Shown here piece after piece: positions 105-4,841 of a DNA stretch of 8,569 nucleotides. A program made the translations under genes and the position numbers. Origin of the DNA: Nitrospinota bacterium (lineage in GTDB: Bacteria; UBA8248). Where the stretch lies: the NCBI GenBank assembly GCA_003506735.1, contig DNYS01000251.1, positions 10,513 to 19,081 of the forward strand, in the 5' to 3' direction. Each line of letters begins with the position of its first letter. Position 1 is the stretch's first letter. Below the pieces are notes generated by a model. It did no database searches. It saw nothing but the letters and a program-made list of their open reading frames with translations, and was not told the DNA's origin.

Positions 105-1088
105 TCAGCCTCCGATGGCGCTCATCGTCCGCTTGGGCTGGACGAATTCTTTTTGTCCGATGAGGTGGCCGGGGGTTTTGGTGCGGACAACGCCGGCGAG
201 CCAGCTTTTGATGGCATCGTCCGATTCTCCCCCGCGGAGGAGGGCCTTGATGTCGTGCTCCACCGTCGAGAACAGGCAGGTCCTGATCTCGCCCTCGGCG
301 GTCAGGCGAATCCGGTTGCAGCTCTCGCAAAATGGCCGTGTCACCGAGGCGATGACGCCGATCTCCCCCCGGCCGTCCTTGTAGCGGTAGCGCGTGGCCG
401 GGTCCGAGGGATTCCCGGAGACCAGCTCCAGTTCGCCCTCGCTTGAGAGGCCCTTGAGAATTTCTTCGGCGGAGAGCACTTTTTCGGGATTCCAGGCCTG
501 ATCGGCGTCGAGCGGCATGTATTCGATGAACCGCACGATGTAGCCCGTCTCGCGCGCCCAGGCGCCAAACCGGGGAAGCTCCTCTTCGGTCAAATTCTTG
601 AGCGCCACCGCGTTGATTTTGATCGGGCTAAATCCCGCGGCCGCGGCCGCCTCGATCCCTTCCATCACCTGGCTCAGCTGGTTCCGGCGCGTCATCAGCA
701 AAAACTTGGTCTCATCGAGCGTATCCAGGCTGATATTGATACGCCGGAGCCCCGCATCGAAAAGCCGCTGGGCCATCCGGGGCAGAAACACCCCGTTCGT
801 TGTGAGCGCCAGATCCATTCCGGGCTGGATGTCGAGCATCCCGCGGATCAGAACGTCCAGATCCTTCCGCAGCAAAGGCTCACCCCCCGTGAGGTGGTAG
901 CTCGTGAAACCCAGCTCTGTCGTGATTCGGACGACCCGGAAGATTTCCTCGTAGGTCAAAATCTCATCGTGCGGAAGAAAGGTCATGCCCTCCTCGGGCA
1001 TGCAGTAAAAACACCGGAAATTACACCGGTCCGTCACCGAGATCCGCAGATCGTCGTGCGCCCGGCCATAGTTGTCGTAAAGTGGCAT
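105..1088 (-). CDS. moaA: GTP 3',8-cyclase MoaA (radical SAM, Moco biosynthesis step 1)
   Basis: This 327-residue protein is a full-length MoaA, a radical SAM enzyme that rearranges GTP to 3',8-cyclo-7,8-dihydro-GTP, the first committed step of molybdopterin synthesis in the cytoplasm. The N-terminal SAM-binding [4Fe-4S] motif CX3CX2C is seen at C22, C26 and C29 (CNFRCFYC). The SAM-contacting GGEP motif lies at 68-71. The second, substrate-binding cluster motif CX2CX13C is at C254, C257 and C271. The chain ends in the double glycine (MSAIGG) typical of MoaA, where the C-terminal tail reaches the active site. The ATG is preceded by GGGAG at a spacing of about 7 nt. The gene starts 13 nt after the stop of the upstream moeA fusion and so is almost certainly cotranscribed with it as the last visible gene of the riboswitch-led operon. 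Nothing is missing or unusual. Family assignment is essentially certain from the two cysteine motifs and the GG tail. Confidence 0.97.
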   Translation of the reverse strand: MPLYDNYGRAHDDLRISVTDRCNFRCFYCMPEEGMTFLPHDEILTYEEIFRVVRITTELGFTSYHLTGGEPLLRKDLDVLIRGMLDIQPGMDLALTTNGVFLPRMAQRLFDAGLRRINISLDTLDETKFLLMTRRNQLSQVMEGIEAAAAAGFSPIKINAVALKNLTEEELPRFGAWARETGYIVRFIEYMPLDADQAWNPEKVLSAEEILKGLSSEGELELVSGNPSDPATRYRYKDGRGEIGVIASVTRPFCESCNRIRLTAEGEIRTCLFSTVEHDIKALLRGGESDDAIKSWLAGVVRTKTPGHLIGQKEFVQPKRTMSAIGG

Positions 1089-1101: not shown

Positions 1102-3063
1102 TTATTTATCGCCGGGGGGTGTCAACACCTGCCCGGTCAGGTCCGTTTTGTATCCACCCAGCGCCTCGACGCTTTCCGCGAAGTCGGGCTCGCGCAAAAC
1201 CCCGATCAGCCGCTGGATGGCCTGCGTCTCCCAATACTCGGCCGGAACGATGAAATCGAAGCGCTCCCAGCCCAGCGATACGAATTCGAGGCCCAAGAGA
1301 CTGGCGGCGGCGAATATGCCGAGCCCGGCGTCGGCCCTCCCTCCGGCGACGGCCATGGCCACCGCCACATGCGTCGTCTCGACGTTCCCGTACCCGTTCA
1401 CATCGCCGGGCGATATTCCCGCCTCGGCGAGCAGGTGATCCAGAAGCACCCGGGTCCCCGCCCCGTTCTGGCGGTTGACGATGGCGACGTCCCCGCGCGC
1501 GAGATCGGCGAGCGAGGCGATCCCCTTGGGATTCCCCGCCGGCAGGAAGATTCCCTGCTCACGCTGGACGAAATTGACGGCCACGACCTCGCGCCCCTTC
1601 AGATATCGGCGGATATAGCTCCAGTTGTAATCGCCCGTTTCGGGATCGAGCAGATGGCTGCCCGCCAGGTGGGCCTCCCCGTTCTTGACGGCTATGAGGC
1701 CCGCCATCGATCCAACCGCCGAAGTGGACAGGCTCATCTCACGGAACCGCGACCGCACACGGCTCGCCAGAAGGTCCAGCGCATTATCGTGGCTTCCCGC
1801 CATCAGGATGTTGCCCCGGATTTCGCTGAGCGGGCGAAGCAGCTCGACCCCCACCTCCTCGCCCGCCTCGATTCCCTCCGAGCCCGGCGGGACCCGCACC
1901 ACCCCGTCGGCCTCGATGAGGCTGCTGATTACGCTGGCGCCCCGCTTGGCGGGAAGGGCGACCAGGCGCCCGCCGACCTCGCCAAGCTTGACCCGGAGGA
2001 ACTCCTCCATCCCCAGCCGGGAGGCGCTCTTGCGGCTCATCACGGCGGTGGCGGCGGAATGCCCATGGGTGGGAGCTCCCGCCATGTGCGCCATCAGCGG
2101 GCGGACGAACTCCTGAAGGGCGAGCACCGCCGATACCGGATATCCGGGAATTCCGATCAGGGGCTTCACCTGGCCGGCGCTGGATTTGCCCACGCCGAGA
2201 ATCGTCGGCTTCCCCGGAAAGATCGCGACGCCGTGGACGAGGAGCTCGCCGATCTTTTTCACGACGGCCGAGGTGAAATCCTCGCGCCCGGCGGACGAGC
2301 CCGCGTTCACGAGCACGATGTCGGCGCACTCGAGAGCGTCCCGGGCGGCCTCCTCGATGGCCTCGAAGCGATCCTCGATGATGGGATACACAAAAGGCGC
2401 ACCGCCCCATTCGGTGATGTACCCCGAAAGGATAACCGAGTTGAATTCGACCAGATCGCCCGGCTTGAGGTCCGCCCCCGGCGAGACCAGTTCATCCCCC
2501 GTGGGGATAATGGCCACGACGGGAGCCGTTCGGACCGCCACCTCGGTGATGCCGGCGGCGAGGATGCCGCCGAGATCGTAGGGGCGGAGACGGTGGCCCG
2601 GCGGAAGCAGTAGATCGCCCTGGACCACATCCTCTCCCGCAACGCGGACATGGTTCCAGGGGACGACCGCCGCCTCGATCTCGATCGTCTCCGAATCGAT
2701 CTCGTTCACGACCTCGACCATGATCACCGCGTCCGTCCCTTCCGGCAGTGGATCGCCCGTATCGACGGGAAACGCGTCCACGCCGGTCAAAAGCGCCCTG
2801 GGCTCGACTACAGATGCCCCGAAGGTGTTTTCGGCACGGACCGCGAAACCGTCCATGGCGGCGGCATGAAAATGCGGACTCGATATGGCCGCGTGGACGG
2901 CCTCGGCCGTGATGCGCCCAAGTGCATTTGGGACGGGAATTATTTCAAAAGGAAGAAAGGGCGACGGCGGCATCTTTTCGAGCAGGCGCGCGAGGGCCTC
3001 CTCGCGCGGGATGTTATCGAGGTAGATGGTTCGTCCCGCTAGGGGAAGGGCGGTATCGCTCAT
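1102..3063 (-). CDS. MoeA-type molybdopterin molybdenumtransferase fused to a PBP-like (LysR-substrate-binding-type) domain
   Basis: This 653-residue protein has two parts. Residues 1 to about 410 form a complete MoeA. They contain MDGFAV at 70-75, GED at 143-145, PTGDEL at 187-192, NAGSSAGREDF at 253-263, HGVAIFPGKPT at 278-288 and IPGYPVSA at 305-312. These are the landmarks of the molybdopterin-binding and active-site loops that insert molybdate (or tungstate) into adenylylated molybdopterin. Residues about 418-645 match the periplasmic-binding-protein-like domain often found C-terminal to MoeA or in ModE-like regulators. Landmarks are GSHDNALDLL at 423-432, NRQNGAGTRVLLDHLL at 530-545, and a GYGNVETTHVAVAMAV stretch from 557 followed by AGLGI. 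No signal peptide is seen, so the PBP-like part is cytoplasmic. A role in sensing or delivering a small ligand such as the oxyanion is my inference. The gene starts at an ATG 48 nt after the preceding moeA stop. The best Shine-Dalgarno-like sequence (AAGG) is about 12-15 nt upstream, rather distant. Fusions of this shape are known in bacteria and archaea. All MoeA motifs are kept, so it is probably an active enzyme. Confidence 0.93.
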   Translation of the reverse strand: MSDTALPLAGRTIYLDNIPREEALARLLEKMPPSPFLPFEIIPVPNALGRITAEAVHAAISSPHFHAAAMDGFAVRAENTFGASVVEPRALLTGVDAFPVDTGDPLPEGTDAVIMVEVVNEIDSETIEIEAAVVPWNHVRVAGEDVVQGDLLLPPGHRLRPYDLGGILAAGITEVAVRTAPVVAIIPTGDELVSPGADLKPGDLVEFNSVILSGYITEWGGAPFVYPIIEDRFEAIEEAARDALECADIVLVNAGSSAGREDFTSAVVKKIGELLVHGVAIFPGKPTILGVGKSSAGQVKPLIGIPGYPVSAVLALQEFVRPLMAHMAGAPTHGHSAATAVMSRKSASRLGMEEFLRVKLGEVGGRLVALPAKRGASVISSLIEADGVVRVPPGSEGIEAGEEVGVELLRPLSEIRGNILMAGSHDNALDLLASRVRSRFREMSLSTSAVGSMAGLIAVKNGEAHLAGSHLLDPETGDYNWSYIRRYLKGREVVAVNFVQREQGIFLPAGNPKGIASLADLARGDVAIVNRQNGAGTRVLLDHLLAEAGISPGDVNGYGNVETTHVAVAMAVAGGRADAGLGIFAAASLLGLEFVSLGWERFDFIVPAEYWETQAIQRLIGVLREPDFAESVEALGGYKTDLTGQVLTPPGDK

Positions 3064-3111
3064 TTTCGGCTAAACCTTACCTTTTTTAACCCAGACTTCT
3101 ACTAAAATGGC

Positions 3112-4353
3112 TCAGTAAAGGGTGACGCGAACCTCCGCGCCGGCCCTGATGCCTTCGTTTTCGAGCGGGACCGTGATGAACCCGTCCGCACCCGTCATGG
3201 TCGATATCATCGCCGAATTGCCCATCAGGGGATGGGCGGCGAACCCCTCTCCCTCCCGCTCCAGCTTGACGCGAACCAGATCCTCGCGTCCCGGCGCGGA
3301 GGGCAGATTTCTCGAGAGTCTGGCGAGAACCCCCTTTTCGCGGTCCAGCTCCGAGGCCGCCTCGCCGCTCAACTGGCGGAGGATGGGCCTCACGAAAGCA
3401 TGAAAGATCATCAGCGCCGAAACCGGGTGTCCCGGTATCCCGACCACCGCCTTATCGGCCCCCCCGCGCCGCACACGGCCGATGATGGTGGGCTTTCCCG
3501 GCTTGATGGAAATCCCGTGAACGAGCACGCCGGGCTCTCCAAGCGAGTCGATGGCCTCGACGGCGAAATCGCGCATCCCTATCGAACTGCCACCCGATAT
3601 CAGAGCCACATCCACGCGCTCCACCGCTTCGGCCAGACGGCTTTTGATGGTGGCCAGATCGTCCGGAAGAATCTCCTCGGTTTCGGGAATCCCCCCCGAC
3701 TCGATTACGGCCGCCGCCAGCGAGAAGCGGTTGATGTCCCGAATCTGGCCGGGGCCGGGCTTCTGGCTTGGGTCCACCAGTTCATCCCCCGTCGGAAGAA
3801 TTGCCACACGCGGCCGGCGGTGGACCTTGAGCGCCGTGATCCCCACCGCCGAGAAGGCGCCGATATCCTGGCTTCGAAGCCGGGACCCCGCCGGGAGAAT
3901 GCGCTCGCCCGCCTTTAAATCGTCGCCCACGCCAAGAACGTTTTCGCCCACCGCTCCGGGCCGGCGGATTTCCACCGTCCCCTCGTCGGGAGCGGTGGTG
4001 TACTCCTCCATCACGACGGCATCGGCGCCGGCGGGCATCATCCCTCCGGTGTTGATCCGGGCCGCTTGGCCTCTGCCCACCTCGAACGCCGGGGCCGACC
4101 CCATGGGGACATGGCCCACAAGCTCCAGATAGGCTGGGATCGAATCGCTCGCGCCAAATGTATCCGGTGCCCGGACGGCATACCCGTCCATGATGGACCG
4201 GGCGAACTCGGGAAGACTCTCCGGGCTGAGGACATCCTCGGCCAGGACGCGGCCCACGGCGTCGAACGAGGAAACCTCCTCGGCCGGCAGGGGAAGAAAA
4301 CCCCTCGCCGCCTCACGGGCCTCCTCGGGCGATACAACCTTGAAAAATTCCAA
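3112..4353 (-). CDS. moeA: Molybdopterin molybdenumtransferase MoeA, stand-alone paralogue
   Basis: MoeA catalyses the last common step of molybdenum-cofactor synthesis: insertion of molybdate into adenylylated molybdopterin with release of AMP. With the start chosen here the protein has 413 residues, close to the usual MoeA size. Motifs, in order, are MDGYAV at 55-60, NTGGMMPAGAD at 101-111, GDDLKAGE at 143-150, PTGDEL at 187-192, SGGSSIGMRDF at 253-263, HGISIKPGKPT at 279-289, and a GIPGHPVSAL loop shortly after. Acidic residues expected in the metal/AMP site (D56, E191, D262) are present. The frame is open further upstream to an ATG at 4428, but that extension reads through the intrinsic terminator and riboswitch platform and encodes non-MoeA sequence. 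I therefore choose the TTG at 4353, which has GGAG 7 nt upstream and gives a normal MoeA N-terminus (EFFKVVSPEEA). It is the first gene behind the Moco riboswitch and is followed by a second moeA and moaA. Having two MoeA proteins may reflect specialisation, for example molybdenum versus tungsten; this is not shown by the sequence. Confidence 0.94.
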   Translation of the reverse strand: MEFFKVVSPEEAREAARGFLPLPAEEVSSFDAVGRVLAEDVLSPESLPEFARSIMDGYAVRAPDTFGASDSIPAYLELVGHVPMGSAPAFEVGRGQAARINTGGMMPAGADAVVMEEYTTAPDEGTVEIRRPGAVGENVLGVGDDLKAGERILPAGSRLRSQDIGAFSAVGITALKVHRRPRVAILPTGDELVDPSQKPGPGQIRDINRFSLAAAVIESGGIPETEEILPDDLATIKSRLAEAVERVDVALISGGSSIGMRDFAVEAIDSLGEPGVLVHGISIKPGKPTIIGRVRRGGADKAVVGIPGHPVSALMIFHAFVRPILRQLSGEAASELDREKGVLARLSRNLPSAPGREDLVRVKLEREGEGFAAHPLMGNSAMISTMTGADGFITVPLENEGIRAGAEVRVTLY

Positions 4354-4364
4354 TCTCCCGCTCC
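4351..4364 (-). promoter_or_regulatory. Ribosome binding site and TTG start of moeA
   Basis: On the minus strand GGAG (4364-4361) is followed after 7 nt by the TTG codon (4353-4351) that begins the MoeA homology. The only nearby ATG (inside GGAATGGAG) is out of frame. The site lies about 25 nt downstream of the terminator T-run, so translation of moeA is possible only on transcripts that read through the terminator. Confidence 0.7.
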
Positions 4365-4389
4365 ATTCCGCCGGATAAAAGTGGAAATG

Positions 4390-4421
4390 AAAAAGCCAGC
4401 CGCCGCAAACGCGGGGCTGGC
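4390..4421 (-). terminator. Intrinsic terminator in the moeA leader (riboswitch expression platform)
   Basis: Read on the minus strand, GCCAGCC-CCGC is followed by a GTTT loop and then GCGG-C-GGCTGGC. This gives an 11-bp GC-rich stem with one bulged C (4402) and a 4-nt loop, directly followed by TTTTT (4394-4390). It sits between the Moco aptamer and the moeA start, the position expected for a transcription-attenuation platform. It can also end transcripts arriving from tatA. The 5' arm (CCAGC, 4420-4416) is complementary to the GCTGG strand that closes the aptamer (4492-4488), so an antiterminator can compete with it. Confidence 0.9.
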
Positions 4422-4492
4422 ATGGCATCCGGCCATCTCTTTCGAGGCGCCGGAGGGTCCAGAGGGAACCCCGGCAATGCCACCGGCCCAGC
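4416..4492 (-). promoter_or_regulatory. Putative antiterminator pairing of the moeA riboswitch
   Basis: On the minus strand GCTGG (4492-4488) can pair with CCAGC (4420-4416). TGGCAT (4482-4477) can pair with ATGCCA (4428-4423). Together they form a two-part helix that ties up the 5' arm of the terminator. The same GCTGG also forms the 3' strand of the aptamer closing stem with CCAGC at 4603-4599. The two pairings exclude each other. If ligand stabilises the aptamer stem, the terminator would be free to fold and transcription would stop. A small competing hairpin, ATGGC/GCCAT (4436-4422), is also possible. The pairing is visible in the sequence; the mechanism is inferred. Confidence 0.6.
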
Positions 4493-4608
4493 GCTCCTTT
4501 CCAGATACCGGGAGGCCGCCCCGTTTCCAGCGCGACCCTTCGGCGCGGTCTCCTAGCGCCGCATGGATGTCGGCGCCTTAGAGCACCTGCGCTCGGAGGC
4601 TGGTCATA
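4477..4608 (-). ncRNA. Molybdenum-cofactor (Moco) family riboswitch aptamer
   Basis: The leader of the moeA-moeA-moaA operon contains a structured RNA whose conserved-looking blocks match what I recall of the Moco RNA motif. A CCTCCGAGC block sits near the 5' end, and a 3' module runs GCCTCCCGGTATCTGG and then AAAGGAGC. A closing stem pairs CCAGC (4603-4599) with GCTGG (4492-4488), extended by CTCC/GGAG. Internal hairpins include GAGC/GCTC with loop GCAGGT, GCGCCG/CGGCGC, and GGTCGC/GCGGCC. The known class sits upstream of Moco synthesis, molybdate transport or Moco-enzyme genes and usually turns them off when cofactor is plentiful. A weak promoter candidate is GATAAT (4643-4638) at the end of tatA, about 35 nt before the closing stem, but no convincing -35 is visible. 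Identification rests on remembered consensus, genomic position and the adjoining terminator. Whether it is the Moco or the tungsten-cofactor variant is not resolved, because I could not assign every helix to the published P1-P5 scheme. Confidence 0.85.
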
Positions 4609-4631
4609 GTTACTTCTCTTAGAGCGCCGCC

Positions 4632-4841
4632 CTAGCCATTATCCCCGTCAGCCGGTTTTCCGGTGACCGAGGCCACGGGCTCTTCCTTCTTTTCGGGCAA
4701 TTCGTCGCCGCTGAGCCCCTTCTTGAAGTTCTTGATCCCCGAAGCCAGGCCGGAGCCGATTTCGGGCAGGCGCTTTGCGCCAAATACAAGCACGCAGATC
4801 AGGAGGACGACAAGGATTTCCGTAACTCCGAACGGGAACAT
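4632..4841 (-). CDS. tatA: Sec-independent (twin-arginine) protein translocase subunit TatA
   Basis: TatA forms the pore-like assembly of the twin-arginine translocase, which exports folded and often cofactor-loaded proteins across the cytoplasmic membrane. The 69-residue product has the family layout. A short N-terminal transmembrane helix spans about residues 6-20, the FG hinge is at 20-21, and an amphipathic helix with the signature FGAKRLPEIGSGLASGIKNF runs over 20-39, followed by KK. It ends in a charged, disordered-looking tail. An upstream in-frame extension to 4913 was not used, because AGGAG lies 8 nt before the ATG at 4841 and TatA proteins begin only a few residues before the membrane helix. 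The gene follows the aminotransferase stop by 25 nt and precedes the Moco riboswitch leader. TatB and TatC are not in the window. The neighbourhood fits, since many Moco enzymes are Tat substrates. TatE or a short TatB are less likely given the length and the LPEIG motif. Confidence 0.95.
   Translation of the reverse strand: MFPFGVTEILVVLLICVLVFGAKRLPEIGSGLASGIKNFKKGLSGDELPEKKEEPVASVTGKPADGDNG

What the first reader, a model, noticed from the sequence alone, without database searches (positions are those of the whole stretch)
4390..4608. Readable OFF-switch: Moco riboswitch with mutually exclusive P1 and antiterminator sharing one GCTGG strand
Seen: CCAGC (4603-4599) pairs with GCTGG (4492-4488) to close the aptamer. 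The same GCTGG, plus TGGCAT (4482-4477), is complementary to ATGCCA and CCAGC at 4428-4416, which includes the 5' arm of a strong intrinsic terminator with five Ts. Known: Moco-family riboswitches sit before Moco genes. Inferred: bound cofactor stabilises the closing stem, frees the terminator arm and stops transcription of moeA-moeA-moaA. Without cofactor, the antiterminator lets it through.
Basis: partly seen in the sequence, partly recalled or inferred. Interest (0 to 1): 0.7.

Follow-up and report, generated by a model that had tools for sequence, protein, structure and literature searches.

The report
Tungsten-cofactor riboswitch gating moeA after tatA
Between the genes tatA and moeA of a little-known bacterium lies a known kind of RNA switch, in the version thought to sense the tungsten form of the molybdenum cofactor, and it is predicted to stop transcription of the cofactor-making genes when that cofactor is plentiful.

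Summary
Minus strand 4610-4477 is an RF01055 hit (59 bits, E 1.7e-12); the pairings and five-T terminator are where stated. Corrections: (1) The aptamer lacks stem P3, the sub-type proposed in 2008 to sense the tungsten cofactor. 10 of 10 riboswitches found in its 18-genome phylum lack P3; 18 of 18 genomes have a tungstate-binding-protein homologue, 1 of 18 has ModA over cut-off. Tungsten cofactor is the likelier ligand, untested. (2) It lies 17-52 nt behind the tatA stop in 10 of 10 loci, not at a transcript start. (3) Only GCTGG is exclusive; TGGCAT:ATGCCA can form in both states. (4) Full-length RNA prefers the terminator even without ligand; the antiterminator dominates only before the terminator's 3' arm appears, in 8 of 10 leaders, so control would be kinetic. 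GCTGG and CCAGC are invariant in 10 of 10, so covariation is untestable. A sister genus keeps the terminator without a recognisable aptamer. New member of a known class.

The parts
4477..4610 (-). RF01055 Moco/Tungsten riboswitch aptamer (whole model 1-135)
   Evidence: 59 bits, E 1.7e-12, gathering score 36
4595..4603 (-). P1 5' strand: outer CCAGC (4603-4599) and core CTCC (4598-4595)
   Evidence: sequence; core pairs in the RF01055 alignment; outer duplex -8.7 kcal/mol
4488..4497 (-). P1 3' strand: core GGAG (4497-4494), bulged C4493, GCTGG (4492-4488), the strand shared with the antiterminator
   Evidence: CGCTGGG directly after GGAG in 10 of 10 leaders
4539..4542 (-). CGAA junction where stem P3 would be; P3 absent
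   Evidence: 15-position gap in the RF01055 alignment; P2 closes straight onto CGAAGGG
4423..4482 (-). anchor hairpin: TGGCAT (4482-4477) pairs with ATGCCA (4428-4423), bringing GCTGG and the terminator 5' arm together; can form in both states
   Evidence: present in the minimum-energy fold together with P1 and terminator, and in the antiterminator-forced fold
4416..4420 (-). CCAGC in the terminator 5' arm, the partner of GCTGG in the antiterminator
   Evidence: sequence; sampled ensembles
4390..4421 (-). intrinsic terminator, stem -23.3 kcal/mol, five T
   Evidence: equivalent hairpin and T run in 10 of 10 leaders
4632..4841 (-). tatA; its stop ends 33 nt before the CTCC of P1
   Evidence: PF02416 E 1e-14; distance
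3112..4353 (-). moeA1 (TTG start, then EFFKVVSPEEA...)
   Evidence: PF03453, PF00994, PF03454; start placed by relatives, G008 has an in-frame stop just before MEFFKV
1102..3063 (-). moeA2 fused to a PBP-like domain
   Evidence: PF12727 E 6.3e-72; NF011068 739.5 bits, over cut-off 534
105..1088 (-). moaA
   Evidence: PF06463, PF04055

Best explanation
Minus-strand 4610-4390 holds an RF01055 riboswitch aptamer without stem P3, followed by a terminator hairpin with five T, between tatA and moeA1, and it likely works as an OFF switch in which bound cofactor, probably the tungsten form, would hold P1 closed and let the terminator stop transcription before moeA1-moeA2-moaA. Shown: the aptamer, the missing P3, the terminator hairpin, the shared GCTGG strand, the gene order, and the tungsten and molybdenum gene content of the lineage. 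Predicted by folding: without ligand the transcript passes through a stretch, with the terminator 5' arm out but not the 3' arm, in which GCTGG and part of GGAG pair with the terminator arm and open P1. Inferred: polymerase passes while that state lasts, so the choice is kinetic; the transcript starts upstream of or inside tatA, so TatA would be made regardless of the switch; the ligand is the tungsten rather than the molybdenum cofactor.
For: Rfam hit. In the window RNA with 209 nt out, antiterminator 0.92 and P1 0.07 when free; P1 1.0 and antiterminator 0.03 with a -10 kcal/mol bonus on core P1; full-length with bonus, terminator 1.0. The free antiterminator reaches 0.68 or more in 8 of 10 leaders. 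In L005 (G004) the spacer has shrunk to 22 nt and folds as a six-pair hairpin that sets GCTGG against CCAGC. The anchor differs as a pair between the window (TGGCAT/ATGCCA) and G008 (CGGCAT/ATGCCG). Order tatA-leader-moeA1 in 18 of 18 loci compared, the aptamer in 10 of 18; 17-52 nt from tatA stop to P1 in 10 of 10, 17-18 nt in three of them. P3 lacking in 10 of 10. TupA homologue 18 of 18 (best solved relative of the G009 query is 3lr1, a tungstate-binding protein, E 4.2e-90); AFOR family 18 of 18; ModA over cut-off 1 of 18 against 9 of 14 control genomes.
Against: Full-length RNA without ligand still prefers the terminator (0.98 in the window; antiterminator 9.6 kcal/mol worse). 2 of 10 leaders (L011, L012) hardly form the antiterminator at any length scanned (0.06 and 0.00), and 5 of 10 are at 0.072 or less at one fixed length just before the 3' arm. 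In L005, L006, L007, L009 and L010 the core of P1 and part of the antiterminator coexist under the ligand bonus (0.36 to 0.77 of samples). In G008 the full-length free fold loses the anchor (0.05 at 224 nt). GCTGG and CCAGC do not vary, so covariation is untested. My own P3 test over other phyla is weak: TupA at 150 bits or more in 36 of 67 genomes with only P3-lacking RNAs against 2 of 12 with a P3 RNA, p 0.026, or p 0.06 without this phylum; at any score p 0.13, or 0.34 without this phylum; AFOR 52 of 67 against 9 of 12, p 1.0. Two P3-bearing RNAs (G147, G284) lie near TupA-like genes. 0 of 80 genomes had a TupA over the NCBIfam cut-off of 400 bits; WtpA 0 of 18. The one genome with ModA over cut-off, G005, is a riboswitch bearer, and 6 of 18 have some ModA-like match at E 0.001 or better. 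E. coli has an AFOR-family hit too, so AFOR is not proof of tungsten use.
Confidence: 0.62

Rival explanations
1. Same OFF switch by termination, but the ligand is the ordinary molybdenum cofactor, or either metal form.
For: 2 of the 19 organisms with P3-lacking RNAs in PMC2408646 had no tungsten genes found; two P3-bearing RNAs lie near TupA-like genes; my P3/TupA association is weak and the P3/AFOR association absent; G005 has both the riboswitch and ModA. MoeA and MoaA serve both cofactors (pathway knowledge, recalled).
Against: No P3 in 10 of 10; TupA homologue 18 of 18, ModA over cut-off 1 of 18.
Confidence: 0.28
2. The terminator is simply the end of the tatA unit, and the aptamer acts on it little or not at all; read-through or a promoter inside tatA feeds moeA1.
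For: Seven genomes of genus g4 keep the terminator with no RF01055 match; full-length RNA prefers the terminator with or without ligand.
Against: The seven bases after GGAG are invariant in 10 of 10 although they lie outside the conserved core, while the P1 5' strand varies and still pairs with them; the free antiterminator reaches 0.68 or more in 8 of 10; the g4 clade falls next to riboswitch bearers, so loss is the simpler reading (support 93/96).
Confidence: 0.12
3. The switch acts on translation of moeA1 rather than on termination.
For: The E. coli moaA Moco RNA is described as holding the ribosome binding site within the nucleotides of P1 (PMC2408646).
Against: The moeA1 start (4353-4351) lies 36 nt behind the T tract and outside the aptamer, with the terminator between.
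Confidence: 0.04

Closest known systems
Moco RNA motif / molybdenum-tungsten riboswitch (RF01055), E. coli moaA type
   Same: Conserved core from CTCCGAGC to GGAAAGGAG, OFF logic, upstream of cofactor synthesis genes.
   Different: No P3; terminator platform with an antiterminator on the P1 3' strand; lies inside a gene row behind tatA.
P3-lacking 'Tuco' variants (PMC2408646), such as the triple arrangement of S. wolfei with putative terminators after the first two RNAs
   Same: No P3, intrinsic terminator, cofactor-synthesis genes, tungsten-related genes in the genome.
   Different: Single copy, mid-row behind tatA, with an anchor hairpin between P1 and terminator.
Classic terminator/antiterminator riboswitches (general kind, recalled)
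   Same: P1 3' strand shared between aptamer and antiterminator.
   Different: Here the antiterminator is predicted to be only transient.

Membership tests
RF01055 Molybdenum/Tungsten riboswitch | covariance-model score over the gathering threshold | tested here: met
   59 vs 36 bits, full model
RF01055 Molybdenum/Tungsten riboswitch | upstream of Mo/W cofactor synthesis, transport or enzyme genes | tested here: met
   moeA1-moeA2PBP-moaA downstream
RF01055 Molybdenum/Tungsten riboswitch | binds Moco or Tuco and changes expression | not testable with these tools
   no binding or expression data here
P3-lacking (tungsten-cofactor) sub-type | stem P3 absent | tested here: met
   10 of 10 in the phylum
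P3-lacking (tungsten-cofactor) sub-type | organism carries tungstate uptake or tungstoenzyme genes | tested here: met
   TupA homologue 18 of 18 (under the strict NCBIfam cut-off); AFOR 18 of 18; WtpA 0 of 18
P3-lacking (tungsten-cofactor) sub-type | P3 absence tracks tungsten use across phyla | tested here: inconclusive
   TupA at 150 bits or more p 0.026, any TupA p 0.13, AFOR p 1.0
P3-lacking (tungsten-cofactor) sub-type | responds to the tungsten form | not testable with these tools
   needs binding or reporter data
Transcription-terminating riboswitch | intrinsic terminator downstream of the aptamer | tested here: met
   -23.3 kcal/mol stem and five T; hairpin and T run in 10 of 10 leaders
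Transcription-terminating riboswitch | antiterminator exclusive with P1 | tested here: met
   window: P1 0.07 and antiterminator 0.92 free, 1.0 and 0.03 with bonus, at 209 nt; a prediction, and it fails in 2 of 10 leaders and is incomplete in 5 of 10
Transcription-terminating riboswitch | covariation of P1 and antiterminator pairings | tested here: inconclusive
   shared strand and arm invariant in 10 of 10; the P1 5' strand varies with pairing kept

The most novel reading that the evidence does not exclude
A sensor swap: this phylum gates moeA-moeA-moaA behind tatA with one inherited terminator, driven by a tungsten-cofactor riboswitch in most genera, and in genus g4 by a different, undescribed sensor in the 172-247 nt leader that replaced the aptamer but kept the terminator.
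Probability: 0.08. Interest if true: 0.72.

Novelty: new member of a known kind. Interest (0 to 1): 0.4.

Why it matters
That P3-lacking Moco RNAs sense the tungsten cofactor was proposed in 2008, and deleting P3 from the E. coli RNA only disrupted regulation (PMC2408646). A lineage with a tungstate-binding-protein homologue in 18 of 18 genomes and ModA over cut-off in 1 of 18, and with a compact leader such as that of L005, gives a natural test object. The place of the switch, behind the export gene tatA, would let cells keep Tat capacity while gating cofactor synthesis.

Tried and rejected
Aptamer remnants in genus g4: RF01055 search found none at E 0.001 in the 7 genomes, and Rfam at E up to 5 on two g4 loci and G006 (L055, L059, L062) gave none; RNAalifold on the 7 leaders gave a covariation term of -0.23, so no new RNA is claimed. 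ATG at 4428 as moeA1 start: rejected, because it would put the terminator inside the gene and G008 has a stop in that frame before MEFFKV. Complementarity by shuffling alone: not significant per leader. WtpA as tungsten marker: none found. A regex P3 classifier missed many hits and stopped with an error; it was replaced by folding the P2-P5 stretch. 16 of 108 rows in which that fold did not close cleanly I judged by eye, 8 of them printed again. A MAFFT alignment of 17 aptamers for a covariance model was made and not used.

Papers: PMC2408646 seen as abstract and outline, passages, and section 11 whole; PMC12121620 and PMC9971707 passages only; all others as search listings. No held paper has riboswitch, moeA and tatA together; two hold Nitrospinota and tungsten (listing only). 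These searches cover only the open papers held.

Full report
OBSERVATION. RF01055 scores 59 bits over its whole length on the minus strand, 4610-4477, E 1.7e-12 against a gathering score of 36, and it is the only copy found in the genome held, which is 84% complete in 297 contigs. The outer closing helix is CCAGC 4603-4599 with GCTGG 4492-4488, with C4493 bulged. The terminator runs from 4421 to 4390 with five T and a stem of -23.3 kcal/mol. The 228-nt leader is more stable than all 200 of its shuffles, z -3.3.

SURROUNDINGS. On the minus strand the row is MaoC-like, aldehyde dehydrogenase, class V aminotransferase, tatA, the leader, moeA1, moeA2 fused to a PBP-like domain, and moaA. The phylum of the window holds 18 genomes in one family. 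By tblastn the order aminotransferase-tatA-moeA1 is seen in 18 of 18, with moeA2 and moaA following where the contig reaches that far. RF01055 is found in 10 of 18: five of five in genus g1 (the window's), one each in g2 and g5, and three of three in g6; not in the seven of g4 nor in G006 of g3.

NOT AT A TRANSCRIPT START. From the tatA stop to the CTCC of P1 there are 33 nt in the window and 17, 18, 18, 31, 39, 40, 40, 45 and 52 nt in the nine others. With 17-18 nt there is hardly room for a promoter and a start site before the outer P1 strand, so the RNA should begin inside or upstream of tatA (inference). The promoter scan found nothing, but it covers only the sigma-70 type.

P3 IS ABSENT. 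The Rfam alignment skips 15 model positions of P3, and P2 closes straight onto CGAAGGG. The 10 riboswitches of the phylum lack P3; the L012 row did not close in the script and was read by eye. In PMC2408646, 58 of 176 examples lacked P3, and 17 of 19 organisms with such RNAs had genes pointing to the tungsten cofactor; the authors propose that this type senses it.

METAL GENES. AFOR-family proteins are in 18 of 18 genomes, with the caution that E. coli scores too. A TupA homologue is in 18 of 18; the query's best NCBIfam model is TupA at 237.8 bits, under its cut-off of 400, and its best solved relative is the tungstate-binding protein 3lr1, E 4.2e-90. WtpA is in 0 of 18. ModA passes its cut-off in 1 of 18 (G005, a riboswitch bearer) and matches at E 0.001 in 6 of 18, against 9 and 11 of 14 control genomes. 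The genomes are partly incomplete. The lineage looks built for tungstate more than molybdate.

MY OWN TEST OF THE P3 RULE. In 386 genomes 84 had a match. I read 108 of the 115 matches, from 81 genomes: I judged 12 to have P3 and 96 not, 16 rows by eye because the fold did not close cleanly. Of 80 genomes searched for TupA and AFOR (80 of 84, for a cap), 79 had a P3 call. TupA at 150 bits or more: 36 of 67 with only P3-lacking RNAs, 2 of 12 with a P3 RNA, Fisher p 0.026, 0.06 without this phylum; TupA at any score 39 of 67 against 4 of 12, p 0.13, 0.34 without this phylum; AFOR 52 of 67 against 9 of 12, p 1.0. Related genomes are not independent, and the 150-bit line was set after seeing the scores. 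Two P3-bearing RNAs, G147 and G284, lie near TupA-like genes. This is weak support, so the ligand claim rests mainly on the published proposal and the lineage's gene content.

SWITCH ANATOMY. Over 10 leaders the seven bases after GGAG are CGCTGGG without exception, the terminator 5' arm keeps GCCAGC without exception, and the P1 5' strand is CCAGC, ACAGC, CCGCG or CCACG, each still giving at least four pairs. A strand that stays fixed while its partner drifts is what a double duty would leave, though shared descent can also do it. It is TGGCAT/ATGCCA in the window, CGGCAT/ATGCCG in G008, one pair short in three g1 leaders, and shrunk to GGCATC-AACG-GATGTC in G004. In G008 the full-length free fold gives it up (0.05).

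FOLDING ALONG THE TRANSCRIPT. With 209 nt out, the free window RNA is 0.92 antiterminator and 0.07 P1; a -10 kcal/mol bonus on core P1 gives 0.03 and 1.0. The maximum of the free antiterminator is 0.92, 1.0, 0.68, 0.78, 0.98, 1.0, 0.98 and 0.85 in eight leaders (L001, L005, L009, L010, L007, L016, L006, L013) and 0.06 and 0.00 in L011 and L012. At one fixed point, just before the 3' arm, only 5 of 10 were above 0.45. In five leaders core P1 and part of the antiterminator coexist under the bonus. Full-length RNA favours the terminator in ten of ten, 0.59 to 1.0 without ligand. These are equilibrium samples at each length; a kinetic choice is inferred.

SISTER GENUS. In seven g4 genomes the tatA-moeA1 gap keeps a terminator of the same build, ACCAGCCCTGC or GCCAGCCCTGC with GGTTGG as 3' arm and a T run, but there is no RF01055 match in the seven genomes at E 0.001, nor at E up to 5 in the two g4 loci given to that scan, and no covariation. 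A tree of MoeA2 from 17 of 18 genomes groups g4 with the riboswitch-bearing g6 at 93/96, just short of the tool's mark of 95/80, so loss of the aptamer is the simpler reading.

VERDICT. The riboswitch is real and belongs to RF01055; termination control is likely; tungsten specificity is the better bet but open. Reading of RNA-seq by others already points to termination by the E. coli Moco RNA (PMC12121620 passage), and putative terminators after P3-lacking RNAs are on record for S. wolfei. What is added here is the place behind tatA, the lineage and its metal genes, the anchor and shared-strand anatomy over ten leaders, and a sister genus with the terminator alone.

Noticed in passing
L055:2437-2679, L056:5604-5846, L057:4657-4903, L058:2896-3142, L059:2692-2863, L060:5241-5487, L061:5436-5664: Genus g4 leaders between tatA and moeA1 keep the terminator but no recognisable aptamer; most share stretches such as AGGAGAT and GCGGG in front of it.
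   Followed up: partly
G147:C6:61237-61375 (L174) and G284:C11:114369-114508 (L169): P3-bearing RF01055 hits in one family with TupA-like genes downstream (about 0.15 and 2 kb), against the simple P3 rule.
   Followed up: partly
G326:C74:8956-9359 (L249, L242); G325:C20:147005-147777 (L250, L241): Two RF01055 aptamers in a row, with a TupA-like gene downstream on the same contig.
   Followed up: no
L227 (G223:C92:4047-4335): RF01055 hit whose P2 stretch is about 205 nt in the fold, far longer than in the other rows.
   Followed up: no
window 3112-4428: The longest ORF for moeA1 starts at ATG 4428-4426 and would swallow the terminator; automatic annotation may pick it.
   Followed up: yes
L070:6039-7917 (moeA2PBP of G008) and L057:2966-4692 (moeA1 of G017): Genes split between two frames in these MAGs; assembly error or real, not decided.
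   Followed up: no
L044:1240-2139 and 2152-3228: An excisionase-type helix-turn-helix joined to a PBP-like domain stands directly before the TupA homologue, a possible tungstate or cofactor regulator.
   Followed up: no
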